64,000 nucleotides of DNA from positions 1 to 64,000 of the forward strand of contig SHZK01000001.1 in assembly GCA_009692305.1 (NCBI GenBank), in the 5' to 3' direction. Origin of the DNA: Gammaproteobacteria bacterium (lineage in GTDB: Bacteria; Pseudomonadota; Gammaproteobacteria; Pseudomonadales; Pseudohongiellaceae). This document shows positions 2,928 through 58,785 of this stretch, piece by piece (positions within the stretch are counted from its first letter, which is position 1; each line of letters begins with the position of its first letter). The notes under the pieces were generated by a model that saw nothing but the letters and a program-made list of their open reading frames with translations, had not been told where the DNA came from and ran no database searches. The position numbers were made by a program, and so were the translations under genes.

Positions 2928-3117
2928 GCAAAAACTCCAGACTCTTTATTTCATACCCAGTACTTCAATCCCAGTACTTCAAACTGGAATCGATTGTAGC
3001 GCAGGGGTTGCTTGAATAAAACGCGGGTATGCGCTATCAGGTATGCCTGATGCGATTGAGGGTACACAAAGTTAGCGCCGCCGCGAACAGCGTGATGACT
3101 TGCGATAGGGCAGTGGC

Positions 3118-3269
3118 TTCGAGCGGCCTTGGTACGCAGTATCGGCTACGCTGCAAACCGCGCCGCTCCGCGGTACCTGCTCTCCGCAAAATGCTCTGGA
3201 AAACGGTCATTTTGCTGCGCTCAGCGCGGTTTTTGATCGCAGCTCCATCCGATTCTGCATACCAAGGCC
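3118..3269 (+). repeat. Module A hairpin repeat, copy A1
   Basis: Intergenic repeat starting CTTCGAGC. The left arm GGCCTTGGTACGCAGTATCG pairs with the right arm ending GCATACCAAGGCC at 3269 (about 21 bp, two mismatches). The interior has a GC-rich mini-hairpin (CCGCG...CGCGG), a central hairpin GCAAAATG...CATTTTGC, and a GCGCTCAGCGC stem, then TTTTTGATCGCAG. It is nearly identical to copy A2 and matches the core of A3-A5, but with different outer arms. Any ORF across it is spurious. Together with its tail it fills most of the 500-bp gap 2928-3426. Confidence 0.85.
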
Positions 3270-3357
3270 TTGATGACTACACGCGATCTGGGTTTTGCTT
3301 TACTTGAAAGATACTCGGACTTATTCGGATATCCAGGGAGTCTGGCAGTGACTGCGA

Positions 3358-4329: not shown

Positions 4330-4482
4330 CTTCGAGCGGCCTTGGTACGCAGTATCGGCTACGCTGCAAACCGCGCCGGTCCGCGGTGCCTGCTCTCCGC
4401 AAAATGCCCCGAAAAACGGTCATTTTGCTGCGCTCAGCGCGGTTTTTGATCGCAGATCCACTCGATTCTGCATACCAAGGCC
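4330..4482 (+). repeat. Module A hairpin repeat, copy A2
   Basis: Near-identical to A1: starts CTTCGAGC, left arm GGCCTTGGTACGCAGTATCG, right arm ending CATACCAAGGCC at 4482, central hairpin GCAAAATG...CATTTTGC. Differences from A1 are a few substitutions in the loops (for example CGGTCC for CGCTCC). Same orientation as A1, 1.2 kb away, on the other side of the VOC gene. Confidence 0.85.
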
Positions 4483-15695: not shown

Positions 15696-15851
15696 GGCGG
15701 GGCAGTATAGCGTATGCAGGGGATTTTCTGCGCATGCCAATAAGAGCAGGGGAGAATTGGTGTTATATCGAATTTTTTGGTGCATGGTTTCTGAGCCGTT
15801 CTTGGCTTCGAGCGGCACCCCCGGGGCCTGCGCAATTGAGATGTGGGTTGG

Positions 15852-15959
15852 GAATTCAACTTCGTTGACAGCCCGGATCGGAGGTGATCGTCACCGAGCA
15901 ATCAGACGCGCAGCGTCGCGAGGAGATGATTACCTGCGAGTCGGGCGGAAAGATGCTCG
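15852..15959 (+). repeat. Module B repeat, copy B1
   Basis: Starts GAATTCAACTTCG and ends GATGCTCG. An imperfect palindrome: CCCGGATCGGAGGTGATCGT near the start faces GATTACCTGCGAGTCGGGCG near the end, with a GC-rich centre (ACGCGCAGCGTCGCGAG). Copies B2, B3 and the truncated B4 are close matches. Preceded at 15806-15820 by an isolated module-A-like left end (CTTCGAGCGGCACC). No protein coding is supported. Confidence 0.8.
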
Positions 15960-15995: not shown

Positions 15996-16162
15996 CTTCG
16001 ATCGGCACCGGGGTGGTTTTGTGGTTCCGCTGCAGACCGCGCCGCTCCCCGTTTTAAACCCAGCGCTGCCCTCTCTCACGAAAAAGCCCTGTACTGCGGT
16101 CTTTTTCGCTCCTTCGGCGCTGGTCTTTGATCGCAGCTGAACCCCAATACCACCCCGATGCC
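15996..16162 (+). repeat. Module A hairpin repeat, copy A3
   Basis: Starts CTTCGATC; outer arm GGCACCGGGGTGG pairs with CCACCCCGATGCC at 16162. The core from CTGCAGACCGCGCC to TTTGATCGCAG matches A4 and A5, but the first mini-hairpin is altered by about 15-20 bp of extra sequence. The central hairpin is CGAAAAAG...CTTTTTCG. It is followed by a tail (16163-16238) nearly identical to that after A5, and then by B2. Confidence 0.83.
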
Positions 16163-16238
16163 TTACTGAATGCGATGTGGACTGGGGACTTGGCTTCGAA
16201 ACAAACCAGACGCCAACGTGAATGCGAAGTGGTTTGAG

Positions 16239-16345
16239 AATTCAACTACGATATCAGCCCGGATCGGAGGTGATCGTCACCGAGCAATCAGGCGCGCAGC
16301 GTCGCGAGGGGATGATCACCTGCGAGTCGGGCGGAAAGTAGCTCG
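16239..16345 (+). repeat. Module B repeat, copy B2
   Basis: Same organisation as B1: GAATTCAAC start, CCCGGATCGGAGGTGATCGT arm, GATGATCACCTGCGAGTCGG arm, end GTAGCTCG. Forms the 3' half of the A3-tail-B2 composite. Arms are better matched to each other than in B1. Confidence 0.8.
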
Positions 16346-16359
16346 CATGTGGTGCCGGC

Positions 16360-16580
16360 TTAGCCTTCGATATCGAAGCGTTTGAGGATTTTAGGGAGTG
16401 CCAGCAGGATGCTGCCAATGATGAGCATTAGTGTGGTATCTGTGATCGCGTAGGGAACACCATCAATGCGATACCGGTGTAATAGATAATTTTCTGTTTT
16501 TGTTTTTTGCCGTAGATGAAATAGCCCATTCCGATGGAGCTGAATACGAGGCTGAGTAGCAGGTATGAGGTCTCGAACAA
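16360..16580 (-). pseudogene. Frameshifted small membrane protein (amino acid transport-like)
   Basis: From a TTG at 16580 (AAGGAAG ribosome site upstream) one frame reads two-thirds of a small two-helix membrane protein (LLLSLVFSSIGMGYFIYGKK, then ALMVFP) and stops at 16428. The +1 frame continues the same family (YAITDTTLMLIIGSILLALP, then KILKRF) to the stop at 16360. Joining them gives ~74 aa, matching a known family of short proteins. The switch lies at a GGG (CCC on the coding strand) at 16453-16455: one more base restores the frame. Homopolymer sequencing error cannot be excluded. Confidence 0.7.
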
Positions 16581-16842
16581 GTGGCTTCCTTTTGCGATTA
16601 AACAGTAGTGTTTTAGCCGCCGGCAATGGCGCCCAGGATTATGAAGGGTTCGCAGCCACCCAGTATGGCATTGGCAAGCGGAATGTCCATGTTGTCATGG
16701 GAAATGTCATGCTGCCAGGAATGCCTTATAGAGGCTACATACGATCAAGGTTTTCCTGATAGTAGTGGCTGGCATTGCGTTCTCCCGTGGAATGGCTAAT
16801 CTTGATGGTAATTAACTATCAATTATTGATCGGAATCAGACG

Positions 16843-24102: not shown

Positions 24103-24264
24103 GCGCCGCAGCTTACTAAAATTCAGCGTACGAGTAAAAATACATTTTGAATAAGTGAGAAATATCTCTGGTTTTACAATTCAGAACTGATTATGTGTGT
24201 CATTTTGATGACTCAGCAATATTTCCTGCTCCCAATCAGTGCTCCTTCAATCTTCGACAAATCA

Positions 24265-24373
24265 GAGCACCTTTCCGCCCGACTCGCAGGTAATAGTCAC
24301 CTCACGACGCTGCGCGTCTGATTGTTCGGTGACCATCACCTCCGATCCGGGGTTGAATCGAAGTTGAATTCGA
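24265..24373 (-). repeat. Module B repeat, copy B3 (reverse orientation)
   Basis: Reverse complement of B1/B2: on the plus strand it reads from CACCTTTCCGCCCGACTCGC to CGAAGTTGAATTCG. The two arms (GACTCGCAGGTAATAG and GACCATCACCTCCGATCC) pair imperfectly. Read on the minus strand it follows A4, preserving the A-tail-B order. Confidence 0.8.
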
Positions 24374-24422
24374 TGAAACTCATTGAATGAAATTGCGTTC
24401 GTTCAATTTGGCACAATGTGAA

Positions 24423-24573
24423 GGCAACGCATGATTGATTGGGTCAGCTGCAATCAAAGACCAGCGCCGAAGGAACAAAAATGACCGCTTTACAGGGCAT
24501 TTTTGCGAGGGAGGGCACCGCAGAGCGGCGCGGTCTGCAGCGGAACCAAACAGTCATGCGGTACCGATCGAAG
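24423..24573 (-). repeat. Module A hairpin repeat, copy A4 (reverse orientation)
   Basis: On the minus strand it starts CTTCGATC. Left arm GGTACCGCATGACTGTTTGG pairs with right arm CCAATCAATCATGCGTTGCC (about 20 bp, four mismatches). The core is CTGCAGACCGCGCC through TTTGATTGCAG with central hairpin GCAAAAATG...CATTTTTG. The arms share little with those of A1/A2 or A3/A5 yet still pair. It lies about 100 bp upstream of modF. Confidence 0.83.
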
Positions 24574-52350: not shown

Positions 52351-52590
52351 TGCTCCGTCTTGTGGTAATGGAAGCCTCCCGGCCGATTGCTCCGGACAAG
52401 CGCTTTTTACTGAGTTTTATCGCATATATAACTGACATCGAAGATATAGATTTTGCCCCTGAAAAGCAACCGATTCACAGTGTTACCCTTCGCTACAGCC
52501 CAGTAAAATCGGGCATTCTGGGCATAAGCTCGTTAAAATTCACACACTGTCACAAAATTCAGCCATCGTTCTGGAAATCTCGCAGGTTAA

Positions 52591-52686
52591 AAGCACAAAC
52601 CGGGGACAGACCCCAATTTCCTTCACGGCGAGTGCAAGTAGCTCGCTTCCATTTGGGAAATTGGGGTCTGTCCCCGGTTTGTGCTT
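52591..52686. repeat. Large perfect hairpin with GGGGTCTGTCCCC core
   Basis: 31-bp perfect inverted arms at 52591-52621 and 52656-52686 (CACAAACCGGGGACAGACCC facing GGGTCTGTCCCCGGTTTGTG), with a 34-nt loop that holds a smaller stem (GGCGAG/CTCGC). The GGGGTCTGTCCCC motif recurs in REP-like palindromes of many proteobacteria. The remaining gap 52351-52740 shows no gene. Confidence 0.85.
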
Positions 52687-52740
52687 CTAATTTGCTATCG
52701 CAACACCCCGCAGATGTCTTCAGCCAGCTGGGCCGACAGG

Positions 52741-54908: not shown

Positions 54909-57737
54909 CTACTTCAACACCTTCTTCAAGAACTCGCCGGTGAATGACCGCTTGTTTGCGGCCACTTGTTCAGGAGTTCCCTCGGCGATGATCTGACCGC
55001 CGCCACTGCCACCTTCCGGTCCGAGGTCCACAATCCAGTCAGCCGTCTTGATCACATCAAGATTGTGTTCGATGACGACGATGGTATTGCCTTGGTCGCG
55101 CAGGTGATGCAGCACGGCCAGCAGTTGCTTGATGTCGTGGAAATGCAAACCGGTAGTGGGTTCGTCCAGAATGTAAAGCGTCTGGCCAGTGTCTCGCTTG
55201 GATAATTCACGGGATAATTTTACGCGCTGCGCCTCACCGCCAGATAGTGTGGTGGCGGCTTGGCCGAGACAGATGTAAGACAGGCCCACATCCATCAGAG
55301 TCTGCAATTTACGGGCGATGACCGGAATCGCATCGAAGAAAACCCGCGCATCTTCAATTGTCATCTCCAGCACCTGGCAGATATTCATCCCCTTGAATTT
55401 TACTTCGAGCGTCTCGCGGTTGTAGCGCTTGCCGCGGCAAACATCACAAGCGACATAGACGTCAGGCAGGAAATGCATCTCTACCTTCACCACGCCATCG
55501 CCCTGACAGGCTTCGCAGCGACCGCCTTTGACGTTGAAGCTGAAGCGACCCGGTTTATAGCCGCGACTGCGCGCTTCTTGCGTGCCAGCGAACAAATCCC
55601 GCACAGGCGTGAAAATGCCAGTGTATGTCGCCGGGTTGGAGCGGGGTGTGCGGCCGATCGGGCTCTGGTCGATGTCTACCACCTTGTCCAGCAGCTGCAA
55701 GCCTTCGATCTCGGAGTATGGCGCGGCGGTCAGGGTGGTGGCGCCATTGAGTTTGGTTACTGCTAGAGGGAATAGCGTATTGTTGATCAGTGTTGATTTT
55801 CCTGAACCTGAGACACCTGTTATGCAAGTAAACAGGCCGATCGGTATACACAAGTCAACCGCTTGCAAATTGTTGCCGCTCGCTCCGCGCAATTGCAGCA
55901 TTTTCTTCGGATTCACCTTGCCGCGGGTTTTGGGTACAGCGATGGATTCGGCTCCGGAAAGATATTTTCCCGTGAGTGATTTTTTGGAGGCGAGTATTTG
56001 TTTGAGACTGCCTTCTGCCACGATCTCACCGCCGTGTACCCCGGCCCCGGGGCCGATGTCGATAATGTGGTCGGCGCTGCGAATCGCTTCCTCGTCGTGT
56101 TCCACTACGATCACAGTGTTGCCGAGGTCGCGGAGATGGAACAGTGTATTCAACAGGCGCGCATTGTCGCGCTGATGCAGGCCAATGGAGGGCTCGTCAA
56201 GAATATACATCACACCCACCAGGCCCGCGCCGATCTGGCTGGCGAGCCGAATGCGCTGCGCCTCGCCCCCTGACAGCGTGTCGGCACTGCGATTCAAGGT
56301 GAGGTAGTTCAAGCCTACATCCACCAGGAATTTCAGCCGGTCCTGCAATTCTTTCAAGACCTTCTCGGCAATCTTTGCGCTCTTTCCCGCGAGCTTTAAT
56401 TTGCTGAAGTAATCAGCCGACTGCAATACGGTCATCGCCGTCACGGTCGGTAAATTGATGCCCTTGATCAGCACATGGCGCGCGTCTTGCTTGAGCCGGG
56501 TGCCTTCGCAATCCGGACAGGATTGTGAACTGAGATACTTCGCCAGCTCTTCCCGCACATGATTGGATTCTGTTTCCCGATAACGGCGATCCATATTGGG
56601 CAGAATTCCTTCGAAGGGATAACTGCGGATATAGGTGTCGCCACGGTCATTCACGTAGTGAAAATCAATCACTTCCTTGCCACTGCCATACAGGATCAGG
56701 TTGCATTGCTTTGGCGTAAGTTTGTTGAAGGGCGTATCGACGTTGAATTTGTAGTGCGCTGCCAGTGAGGTGAGCATCTGAAAGTAATAGAGGCTGCGCC
56801 GGTCCCAGCCGCGGATGGCGCCTTCGGACAGGGCGAGTGAGGCATCGGTAATGATGCGCGACTCGTCGAAGAACTGTTTCAGCCCCAAACCATCACAACT
56901 CGTACAGGCTCCTGCCGGATTATTAAATGAGAACAGGCGCGGCTCCAGTTCGGAAATGCTGTGGCCACATTGTGGGCAGGCAAACAGGGCGGAGAACACC
57001 AGGTCCTGTTCCTTCTGCTGCGTATCTGTAACGCTGACGACGGCGAGGCCATCTGCTAACTGGATTGCTGTCTCAAAACTCTCTGCCAGGCGCTGCTCGA
57101 GTCCTGCCTTGATCTTGAGTCGATCGATAACCACTTCAATCGTGTGTTTCTTGTTCTTCTCCAACTCCGGTGGGTAATCGATCTCACAGACCAGGCCATT
57201 GATGCGGGCGCGGATAAAGCCGCTGCCGCGCAATTCATTGAACACATGCAGATGCTCGCCCTTGCGTTCCCGGACGATCGGCGCCAACACCATGATGCGC
57301 GTGTCCACGGGCAATTCCATGACCTTGTCCACCATCTGGCTGATGGTCTGTGCCTCCAGTTTGATGTGATGGGTTGGGCAGTGGGGTTCGCCGACGCGGG
57401 CGAACAGCAGGCGCAGGTAGTCGTAGATCTCGGTAATGGTGCCGACAGTGGAGCGCGGGTTATGAGAGGTGGACTTTTGTTCGATGGAAATAGCGGGTGA
57501 CAGGCCCTCAATATGGTCGATATCCGGTTTTTCCATCATCGACAGGAACTGTCGGGCGTAGGTGGATAGTGACTCGACATAACGGCGCTGGCCCTCGGCA
57601 TAGAGTGTATCAAACGCCAGCGAGGATTTGCCGGAGCCGGACAGGCCGGTGATTACTACCAGTTTGTCGCGAGGGATGGTGATATTGATGTTCTTTAGAT
57701 TATGGGTGCGGGCACCACGTACTACTATCTTGTCCAT
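54909..57737 (-). CDS. uvrA: Excinuclease ABC subunit A
   Basis: 942 aa, full length. Start [19 protein letters not shown]; Walker [15 protein letters not shown] and [14 protein letters not shown]; two ABC signatures [15 protein letters not shown] and [15 protein letters not shown]; zinc finger cysteines [20 protein letters not shown] with the later CEACQGDG...[10 protein letters not shown]. Damage recognition in nucleotide excision repair with UvrB. It is divergent from ssb, the usual gammaproteobacterial pairing; no CTGT-N8-ACAG LexA box was found between them, where repeat A5/B4 sits instead. Confidence 0.97.
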
Positions 57738-57881: not shown

Positions 57882-58034
57882 CTTCGAGCGGCACCGGGGT
57901 GGCATTGGGTTTCTGCTGCAGCCCGCGCCGCTCCGCGGTTCCCTCCATCACGAAAAAGCCCTGTACTGCGGTCTTTTTCGCTCCTTCGGCGCTGGTCTTT
58001 GATCGCAGCTGAACCCCAATACCACCCCGATGCC
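57882..58034 (+). repeat. Module A hairpin repeat, copy A5
   Basis: Starts CTTCGAGC; left arm GGCACCGGGGTGGCATTGGG pairs with right arm CCCAATACCACCCCGATGCC (20 bp, few mismatches). Core CTGCAGCCCGCGCC to TTTGATCGCAG, mini-hairpin CCGCG/CGCGG, central hairpin CGAAAAAG...CTTTTTCG. Followed by a ~75-bp tail nearly identical to that after A3. Lies between uvrA and ssb. Confidence 0.85.
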
Positions 58035-58109
58035 TTGCTGAATGCGATGTGGACTGGGAACTTGACTTCGAAACAAACCAGACGCCAACGTGAATGCGAA
58101 GTGGTTTGA

Positions 58110-58155
58110 GAATTCAACTACGATATCACCTCCGAGTCGGGCGGAAAGGTGCTCG
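58110..58155 (+). repeat. Module B repeat, truncated copy B4
   Basis: Begins GAATTCAACTACGATATCA like B2, then jumps to the last part (CGAGTCGGGCGGAAAGGTGC). About 60 bp of the palindrome centre and left arm are missing, as expected from hairpin-mediated deletion. Confidence 0.75.
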
Positions 58156-58314
58156 CTTTTAAGCTTGCAAAAGGTGCTCGTTGTTAAGCTTACAATTGGG
58201 CATTCAGGAAATTGGTAGAGAGGATCTCTGCAAATATAGAGGAAAGTTTCTCAAGCTGCTGAGCATGGTATAGACTTACGCACTGGATAAATTGGTTTAG
58301 ATGCGGAGGCAAAA

Positions 58315-58785
58315 GTGGCAAGTCGAGGTGTAAATAAGGTAATTCTGGTAGGTAATCTGGGAAATGATCCAGAAGTGCGCTATATGCCTAACGGCAATGC
58401 CGTTGCCAATGTGTCGCTCGCGACCAGTGACAGCTGGAAAGACAAAACTACCGGCGAGCAGCAGGAAAAAACCGAGTGGCATCGGGTTATTTTCTTCAAT
58501 CGCCTGGCGGAAATAGTCGAGCAATACGTGAAGAAAGGTTCCAAGTTATACATCGAGGGTCGTTTGCAGACGCGCTCCTGGGAACAGGATGGCGTCAAGC
58601 GCTATACCACTGAAATTGTAGCCAGTGAGATGCAGATGCTGGATTCCCGCGGCGCCGGTGCTGGCGACAGTTCGTTTGGGCAGGATCGCCCGTCTTCGAA
58701 TGCTCCATCAGCACGCAGCGCTCCTCCGGCGCAGCAATCAGCGCCTGCCAATTTCGATAATTTCGACGACGACATACCGTTTTAG
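58315..58785 (+). CDS. ssb: Single-stranded DNA-binding protein
   Basis: 156 aa from GTG 58315 with a perfect GGAGG 5 nt upstream. OB fold (residues ~4-110: [48 protein letters not shown]), a Pro/Ser/Ala-rich linker and the acidic DDDIPF tip that recruits repair and replication proteins. Divergent from uvrA. Intact. Confidence 0.97.

What the first reader, a model, noticed from the sequence alone, without database searches (positions are those of the whole stretch)
57882..58034. Dispersed hairpin repeat whose outer arms differ between copies but still pair within each copy
Five intergenic copies of module A (3118-3269, 4330-4482, 15996-16162, 24423-24573 reverse, 57882-58034) share an outer CTTCGA(G/T)C flank, a core from CTGCA to GATCGCAG and three internal hairpins. 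The outer arms fall into three unrelated sequences (GGCCTTGGTAYGCAG, GGCAYCGGGGTGG, GGTACCGCATGA), each paired with its own partner. The central hairpin also covaries: CGCAAAATG/CATTTTGCG, GCAAAAATG/CATTTTTG, CGAAAAAG/CTTTTTCG. Changes on both sides of a stem point to a structure under selection (RNA, or a folded single-stranded DNA intermediate). Mobile-element ends would normally be conserved rather than varied. Template switching at palindromes, which makes arms match, is the rival explanation. I know of no named family that fits.
Basis: partly seen in the sequence, partly recalled or inferred. Interest (0 to 1): 0.75.

Follow-up and report, generated by a model that had tools for sequence, protein, structure and literature searches.

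The report
Mobile hairpin repeats folding as RNA
A family of about 155-base DNA repeats scattered between the genes of some Gammaproteobacteria keeps an elaborate hairpin shape while its sequence changes freely, and small mismatches show that the strand opposite to the one first read is the one that folds, most likely as RNA.

Summary
Five copies lie in the window and about 40 in the genome. Covariance searches found the family in 19 of 84 genomes of the genus, 12 of 390 sampled in the order, and 57 places in the cultured Pseudomaricurvus alkylphenolicus. Rfam has no match. Covariation exceeds a tree-based null in three sets: 9/43, 18/46 and 19/45 pairs. New: stem mismatches are strand-asymmetric. 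Of 33 close neighbour pairs, 30 are inverted so that the folding strands point outward. Copies are patchy between genomes, absent from the short uvrA–ssb spacer of relatives, and often flanked by genome-specific direct repeats. In Pseudomaricurvus orientation follows the replichore rather than the genes. I read them as non-autonomous mobile repeats carrying a structured RNA. The mobiliser is unknown. The kind is known; I did not find this family described.

The parts
57882..58035 (-). Hairpin unit, the copy of the finding; strand given is the strand inferred to fold
   Evidence: R1 match 169.5 bits on the + (reader) sense; fold-strand inference from A.C/G.T asymmetry and RNA folding energy
57890..57914 (.). 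Outer arm, 5' side on the + strand (GGCACCGGGGTGGCATTGGGTTTCT)
   Evidence: pairs with 58010-58034 (L001: 2 A.C, 0 G.T, 2 other mismatches)
58010..58034 (.). Outer arm, 3' side on the + strand
57915..58009 (-). Conserved core: GCTGC/GCAGC stem, GCGCCG/CGGCGC stem and two inner hairpins
   Evidence: Alignment A1 and covariation counts
57951..57980 (-). Central hairpin (CGAAAAAGCCC...CGGTCTTTTTCG)
   Evidence: Helix 5; pairs 89/118, 90/117 and 95/112 of A1 significant against the tree null
57882..57887 (.). CTTCGA box at the outer boundary
58066..58071 (.). Second CTTCGA box, about 30 nt beyond the hairpin; with 57882-57887 a short terminal direct repeat
   Evidence: 12 of 20 copies with the outer box have a second one, 11 of them at 29-32 nt; 0.2 expected by shuffling
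3117..3270 (-). Hairpin unit, copy 2
   Evidence: 141.0 bits
4330..4483 (-). Hairpin unit, copy 3
   Evidence: 133.1 bits
15996..16163 (-). Hairpin unit, copy 4, with enlarged apical loop
   Evidence: 159.6 bits; alignment
24422..24573 (+). Hairpin unit, copy 5
   Evidence: 157.3 bits
15806..15828 (.). Apparent remnant of a copy with nearly the whole hairpin lost (CTTCGAGCGGCACC joined to CCCGGGGCC, followed by the usual downstream sequence)
   Evidence: Read; judged by eye only

Best explanation
The finding is one copy of a non-autonomous interspersed repeat. The unit is about 190 bp: a leader of about 30 nt, a branched hairpin of about 155 nt and short genome-specific direct repeats at the two boundaries. 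Selection keeps the fold and not the stem sequence, so the outer arms drift into unrelated sequences while staying paired. The unit spreads between intergenic sites with the help of an unidentified enzyme. In this genus two units often lie head to head with their folding strands pointing outward; in Pseudomaricurvus mostly single units are inserted, or retained, in one orientation relative to replication. Shown: structure, covariation, strand asymmetry, patchy distribution, absence from one orthologous spacer in relatives, orientation bias in one genome. Inferred: transcription, RNA rather than single-stranded DNA as the folded form, and mobilisation in trans.
For: Covariation beyond a tree-based null in three sets: 9 of 43, 18 of 46 and 19 of 45 pairs. 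In opposite-strand neighbour pairs, plus-strand members 71:9 and minus-strand members 64:5. Complementary strand more stable as RNA in 139 of 147 and 27 of 30 copies, mean about 8.8 kcal/mol. Conserved loop bases are purine-rich on that strand in 45 sequences of 17 genomes. 19 of 84 genus genomes, 12 of 390 order genomes in 6 of 142 genera, 57 matches in P. alkylphenolicus. uvrA-ssb spacer about 570 bp in G000 with the copy, at most 290 bp in 18 of 28 measured relatives, 200 bp in G008. Boundary direct repeats.
Against: No transcript was seen; no RNA-seq was available, and no promoter was shown. G.T is also the mildest transition mismatch in DNA (recalled), so single-stranded DNA is not excluded, and a strand-biased C-to-T mutation process on the folding strand could add to the asymmetry. 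The folding energies are not independent of the wobble count. With correction over all column pairs only 1, 8 and 5 structure pairs stay significant. The orientation bias was found in one genome; elsewhere the model-sense flank is G-rich in 26 of 42 (G000; 14 of 19 singles), 0 of 5 (G022), 6 of 9 (G101), 6 of 8 (G181), 2 of 4 (G209), 6 of 10 (G130) and 4 of 4 (G039). Several orthologous intergenic regions carry copies in different species, which fits old insertions or hot spots as well as recent mobility. No linked mobiliser gene was found.
Confidence: 0.55

Rival explanations
1. The hairpins act as single-stranded DNA: they are the ends of REPIN-like miniature transposons, cut and rejoined in trans by a Y1 HUH transposase at the replication fork.
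For: Inverted pairs with a free spacer, like REPINs; orientation follows the replichore in G466; Y1_Tnp found in 13 of 13 sampled genus genomes that carry the element against 30 of 48 without (Fisher one-sided 0.006).
Against: No R1 match beside 20 Y1 loci of the genus or the 3 of G466; GTAG/CGTC tags rare; genome size and completeness confound the co-occurrence; the strand asymmetry is stronger than I would expect from DNA pairing; the folding strand is the C-rich, lagging-sense strand, whereas IS200/IS605 elements (recalled) use structures on the lagging-strand template.
Confidence: 0.25
2. Template switching between the arms of a palindrome copies one arm into the other; there is no selection on structure.
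For: Several arms are nearly perfect, and what looks like palindrome-mediated loss is seen at 15806-15828.
Against: Strand-asymmetric mismatches; covariation in inner stems, including the GGA-loop stem in the Pseudomaricurvus set.
Confidence: 0.05
3. A bidirectional intrinsic terminator or insulator cassette: the central AAAAAGCCC...CGGTCTTTTT hairpin ends transcription from both sides.
For: The A-tract/GC stem/T-tract layout; in G466 only 4 of 30 examined copies lie between divergent ORFs.
Against: Two of the five window copies (24422, 57882) lie between divergent genes, and 15996 does too if ORF 16360-16626 is not a gene; a terminator needs neither a 25-bp variable outer stem nor conserved junction bases.
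Confidence: 0.1
4. An RNA retroposon, a bacterial SINE: the RNA is copied by a reverse transcriptase and inserted.
For: RNA-like strand signature, boundary direct repeats; G466, the genome with most copies, has two RVT_1 matches.
Against: RVT_1 in only 9 of 84 genus genomes, in 4 of the 19 carriers, and none found in G000 (94% complete) with its about 40 copies; no significant co-occurrence (0.11); no R1 match beside the 16 fetched reverse-transcriptase loci.
Confidence: 0.07

Closest known systems
REPIN / BIME, inverted REP doublets linked to RAYT genes (PMC3116915, PMC2817692, PMC8266576: passages seen)
   Same: Extragenic, many copies, inverted pairs with variable spacer, compensatory changes
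   Different: Unit is about 155 nt and branched instead of 20-40 nt; GTAG head rare; RAYT genes not flanked by it
bcr1-bcr18 repeats of Bacillus cereus (PMC3446304: passages seen)
   Same: Dispersed intergenic repeats; bcr1-3 described there as MITE-like, bcr10 and bcr18 as having conserved secondary structure; 84 of 165 and 62 of 155 copies transcribed in two strains
   Different: No sequence relation was tested; different phylum; no strand-asymmetry evidence in the passages seen
MRSC-65-2 mobile/repeat sequence candidate (PMC11109978: passages seen)
   Same: Covarying structure, often dozens of copies per genome, RNA or DNA form left open by its authors
   Different: Single long stem with a UYCCGG repeat; ours is branched with other conserved bases
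TIRs of TIRYT elements (PMC3733652: abstract and two sections read)
   Same: Some are self-complementary long repeats, dispersed as dimers
   Different: Defined by flanking a tyrosine transposase gene, which was not found here
BRE, Betaproteobacterial repeat element (PMC3110155: passages seen)
   Same: About 90-bp intergenic repeat of unknown function found in an sRNA screen, up to 29 copies
   Different: No sequence or structure comparison made; other class of bacteria

Membership tests
REP/REPIN with RAYT | GTAG (or CGTC) tag at the hairpin foot | tested here: not met
   GTAG near the foot in 3 of 30 G466 and 4 of 141 genus copies on the folding strand, 0 of 30 and 6 of 141 on the other; CGTC in 0, 0, 1 and 2
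REP/REPIN with RAYT | Y1 transposase gene flanked by the repeat | tested here: not met
   No R1 match in the 20 genus Y1 loci fetched or 3 of G466; loci reach at most 1.5 kb to each side, and only the best genus matches had loci
REP/REPIN with RAYT | Inverted doublets | tested here: met
   Of 33 neighbour pairs within 600 nt among 147 genus hairpins, 30 are + then - (59-197 nt apart), 2 same-strand, 1 reversed. Not general: in G466 53 of 57 are single, and G181 has direct pairs
MITE with terminal inverted repeats | Conserved terminal inverted repeats and target duplications | tested here: inconclusive
   Boundary boxes are direct repeats with a genome-specific sequence; one pair carries CTTCGATCGG-like ends in inverted order
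Integron attC site | RYYYAAC ... GTTRRRY boxes at the hairpin foot (motif recalled) | tested here: not met
   0 of 30 and 0 of 141
Any Rfam 15 family | Covariance-model match | tested here: not met
   0 at gathering score in the window; in 8 loci with copies only one match, outside the hairpins, at E 0.94
Transcribed structured RNA | Transcript of the folding strand | not testable with these tools
   No RNA-seq held

The most novel reading that the evidence does not exclude
A bacterial SINE-like parasite: a self-promoted, branched non-coding RNA that is itself the mobile agent and inserts at replication forks in a fixed strand sense, leaving short direct repeats, with no protein of its own.
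Probability: 0.1. Interest if true: 0.88.

Novelty: new variant of a known kind. Interest (0 to 1): 0.58.

Why it matters
Bacterial interspersed repeats are usually treated as DNA palindromes. Here the residual mismatches say which strand folds, which turns an old ambiguity (RNA or DNA?) into a test that can be run on any repeat family. A cultured host with 57 matches makes the question of what moves such elements experimentally accessible, and the replichore bias in that host suggests that replication forks take part.

Tried and rejected
Y1/RAYT genes as linked mobiliser: 20 genus loci and 3 in Pseudomaricurvus, no hairpin beside them. Reverse transcriptase as mobiliser: none found in G000, present in 4 of 19 carriers and twice in Pseudomaricurvus, no hairpin beside 16 fetched loci. 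Autonomous element with cargo: one pair in G075 lies 3.4 kb apart, but reading it showed a truncated second hairpin, three ORFs without Pfam match and another hairpin, so not one clean element. Neighbouring ORFs of 26 of the 30 fetched G466 copies (75 of 85 ORFs, plus 3 from G075; 78 scanned): only metabolic, regulatory and similar families among the 25 of 118 families shown, so a mobility gene matched once could be hidden among the 93 not shown. attC: not met. Plasmids and phages: no match. A 26-letter exact pattern in 84,980 genomes: 0. Target-derived arms: rejected because copies in one genome often share arms. Class-wide search of 369 genomes with a broader model: own genome plus one weak match outside the order, whose sequence does fold as a long-armed hairpin.

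Dropped rows: the mismatch count used 105 of 111 matches (five partial and one weak dropped) and 42 of 56 (13 weak opposite-strand self-matches and one weak partial dropped); 29 of 31 of the other-genus matches (two weak opposite-strand dropped); 30 of 57 for G466 (those with loci). The C-like set was chosen by a motif in the central hairpin. The tree null is my own imitation of R-scape, 40 null alignments each; over all column pairs instead of structure pairs only 1, 8 and 5 structure pairs pass, with 1, 3 and 0 pairs outside the structure. Gene neighbourhoods rest on a simple ORF finder, not on annotation.

Full report
What was checked. They lie between the longer ORFs; short unscanned ORFs of 85-148 codons overlap four of them. 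The copy at 57882 sits between uvrA (54909-57737, minus) and ssb (58315-58785, plus), both confirmed by Pfam. Genome-wide, 42 of the 52 listed matches reach 36 bits, one of them an opposite-strand match and one partial, so I say about 40.

Covariation. On a sequence-only alignment (A1) RNAalifold proposes 43 pairs, 22 with double changes. Controls by shuffling and by sliding are far below the observed values. Because related copies can mimic covariation, I also simulated columns on a FastTree tree with the same number of substitutions. 9 of 43 structure pairs remain significant in A1, 18 of 46 in 30 of the 57 Pseudomaricurvus copies and 19 of 45 in 48 C-like hairpins of the genus (C-like is the type that forms the second member of most pairs in G075, chosen there by a motif). 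With the stricter correction over all column pairs, 1, 8 and 5 structure pairs remain, and 1, 3 and 0 pairs outside the structure.

Which strand folds. A transition in a paired stem leaves either G·T or A·C on a given strand, with equal chance if neither strand matters. I aligned each 5' arm to the reverse complement of its 3' arm with a scoring that does not know about wobble. A·C on one strand is G·U on the other. The sign is the same in 23 of 27 genomes, reversed in 1 and tied in 3; Pseudomaricurvus gives 46:2 in 30 copies. Plus-strand and minus-strand members of opposite-strand neighbour pairs both show it (71:9 and 64:5), so the property belongs to each hairpin and not to one strand of the composite. 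Folding energies agree (166 of 177), although they are not independent of the wobble count. The bases conserved in loops are purine-rich on that strand (by eye in the 45-sequence alignment of 17 genomes: ATNAAAGA, GA..GAG, GAGGGNA, GGA loop).

Anatomy and arrangement. Among the 147 genus hairpins, 33 neighbour pairs lie within 600 nt: 30 are inverted (+ then -, 59-197 nt apart), two are same-strand and one is reversed. In G075 all 20 matches form ten such pairs, nine of them 85-197 nt apart and one 3.4 kb. In Pseudomaricurvus 53 of 57 are single, and in G181 four direct tandem pairs were read. The boundary is outside the variable arms. In G000, 20 of 34 hairpins examined (of 42) have CTTCGA at the outer boundary, and 12 of these 20 have a second CTTCGA beyond the other end, 11 at 29-32 nt and one at 58, against 0.2 expected. 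In Pseudomaricurvus the box is GAGGCA: 18 of 30 upstream (14 of them at -32), 23 of 30 downstream, 12 of 30 both, against 0.4 expected upstream. I call these genome-specific terminal direct repeats; whether they are target-derived is open.

Mobility. Matches per genome run from 0 to 57. At uvrA-ssb I measured 28 of the 29 best-matching relatives' loci (81 of 84 genomes had a match to the query): 18 have at most 290 bp, two have 343 and 414, and eight are longer. The eight long ones hold other giant hairpins that R1 does not recognise. G000 has about 570 bp with the element, the close relative G008 200 bp without it. The empty-site boundary is not exact, because the spacers are diverged. Some intergenic regions carry a copy in two species (for example L003 and L106), which means old insertions or hot spots exist as well.

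Orientation. Of eight 20-kb stretches with copies, the six whose copies share one strand all agree in skew sign; two hold one copy of each strand. Neighbouring ORF orientation is mixed: 9 convergent, 17 codirectional, 4 divergent; 4 of 30 copies are covered by ORFs of 117-162 codons, the rest by none of 110 or more. The simplest reading is strand-specific insertion or retention at replication forks. This is one genome; others are mixed.

What it is not. Rfam has no match. REP tags and linked RAYT genes fail, attC boxes fail, reverse transcriptase genes are neither linked nor significantly co-occurring, and plasmid and phage collections have no match.

Literature. The REPIN, REP transposase, bcr, BRE and MRSC papers were seen in passages, the REP/TIR paper in its abstract and two sections. 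Eight full-text searches did not list a paper describing this family; subscription papers are mostly missing from the library, so this is no proof of novelty.

Verdict. A new family of an established kind, interspersed structured repeats, with an unusually clear signature that one particular strand folds as a single-stranded nucleic acid, most likely RNA. Mechanism of spread and cellular role are inferred only.

Noticed in passing
L202, L203, L204, L214, L217, L218, L222, L225 (uvrA-ssb spacer of eight relatives): Other giant hairpins, often in pairs, around different conserved cores (GGACACGCCGTGAACCC.., GGGCCATCCCTGGCCC..), several with near-perfect arms that differ between copies; the same spacer is hit by several hairpin families.
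   Followed up: partly
window 15852-15958, 16238-16351, 24258-24371, 58125-58158: A second dispersed hairpin repeat (CCCGGATCGGAGGTGATC..GAGTCGGGCGGAAAG) that often follows the element.
   Followed up: no
window 52582-52695: Inverted repeat with GGGGACAGACCCC, resembling (recalled) repeats seen near Y1 transposases.
   Followed up: no
L137 1529-3866: Three ORFs with signal-peptide-like starts (by eye) and no Pfam match between a truncated and a complete hairpin.
   Followed up: partly
L017, L023, L029: The GGA-loop hairpin of some C-like copies carries a related insertion of about 50 nt in its loop.
   Followed up: no
L400 (G556): A single long-armed hairpin of similar layout in a genome of the same class but another order.
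   Followed up: partly
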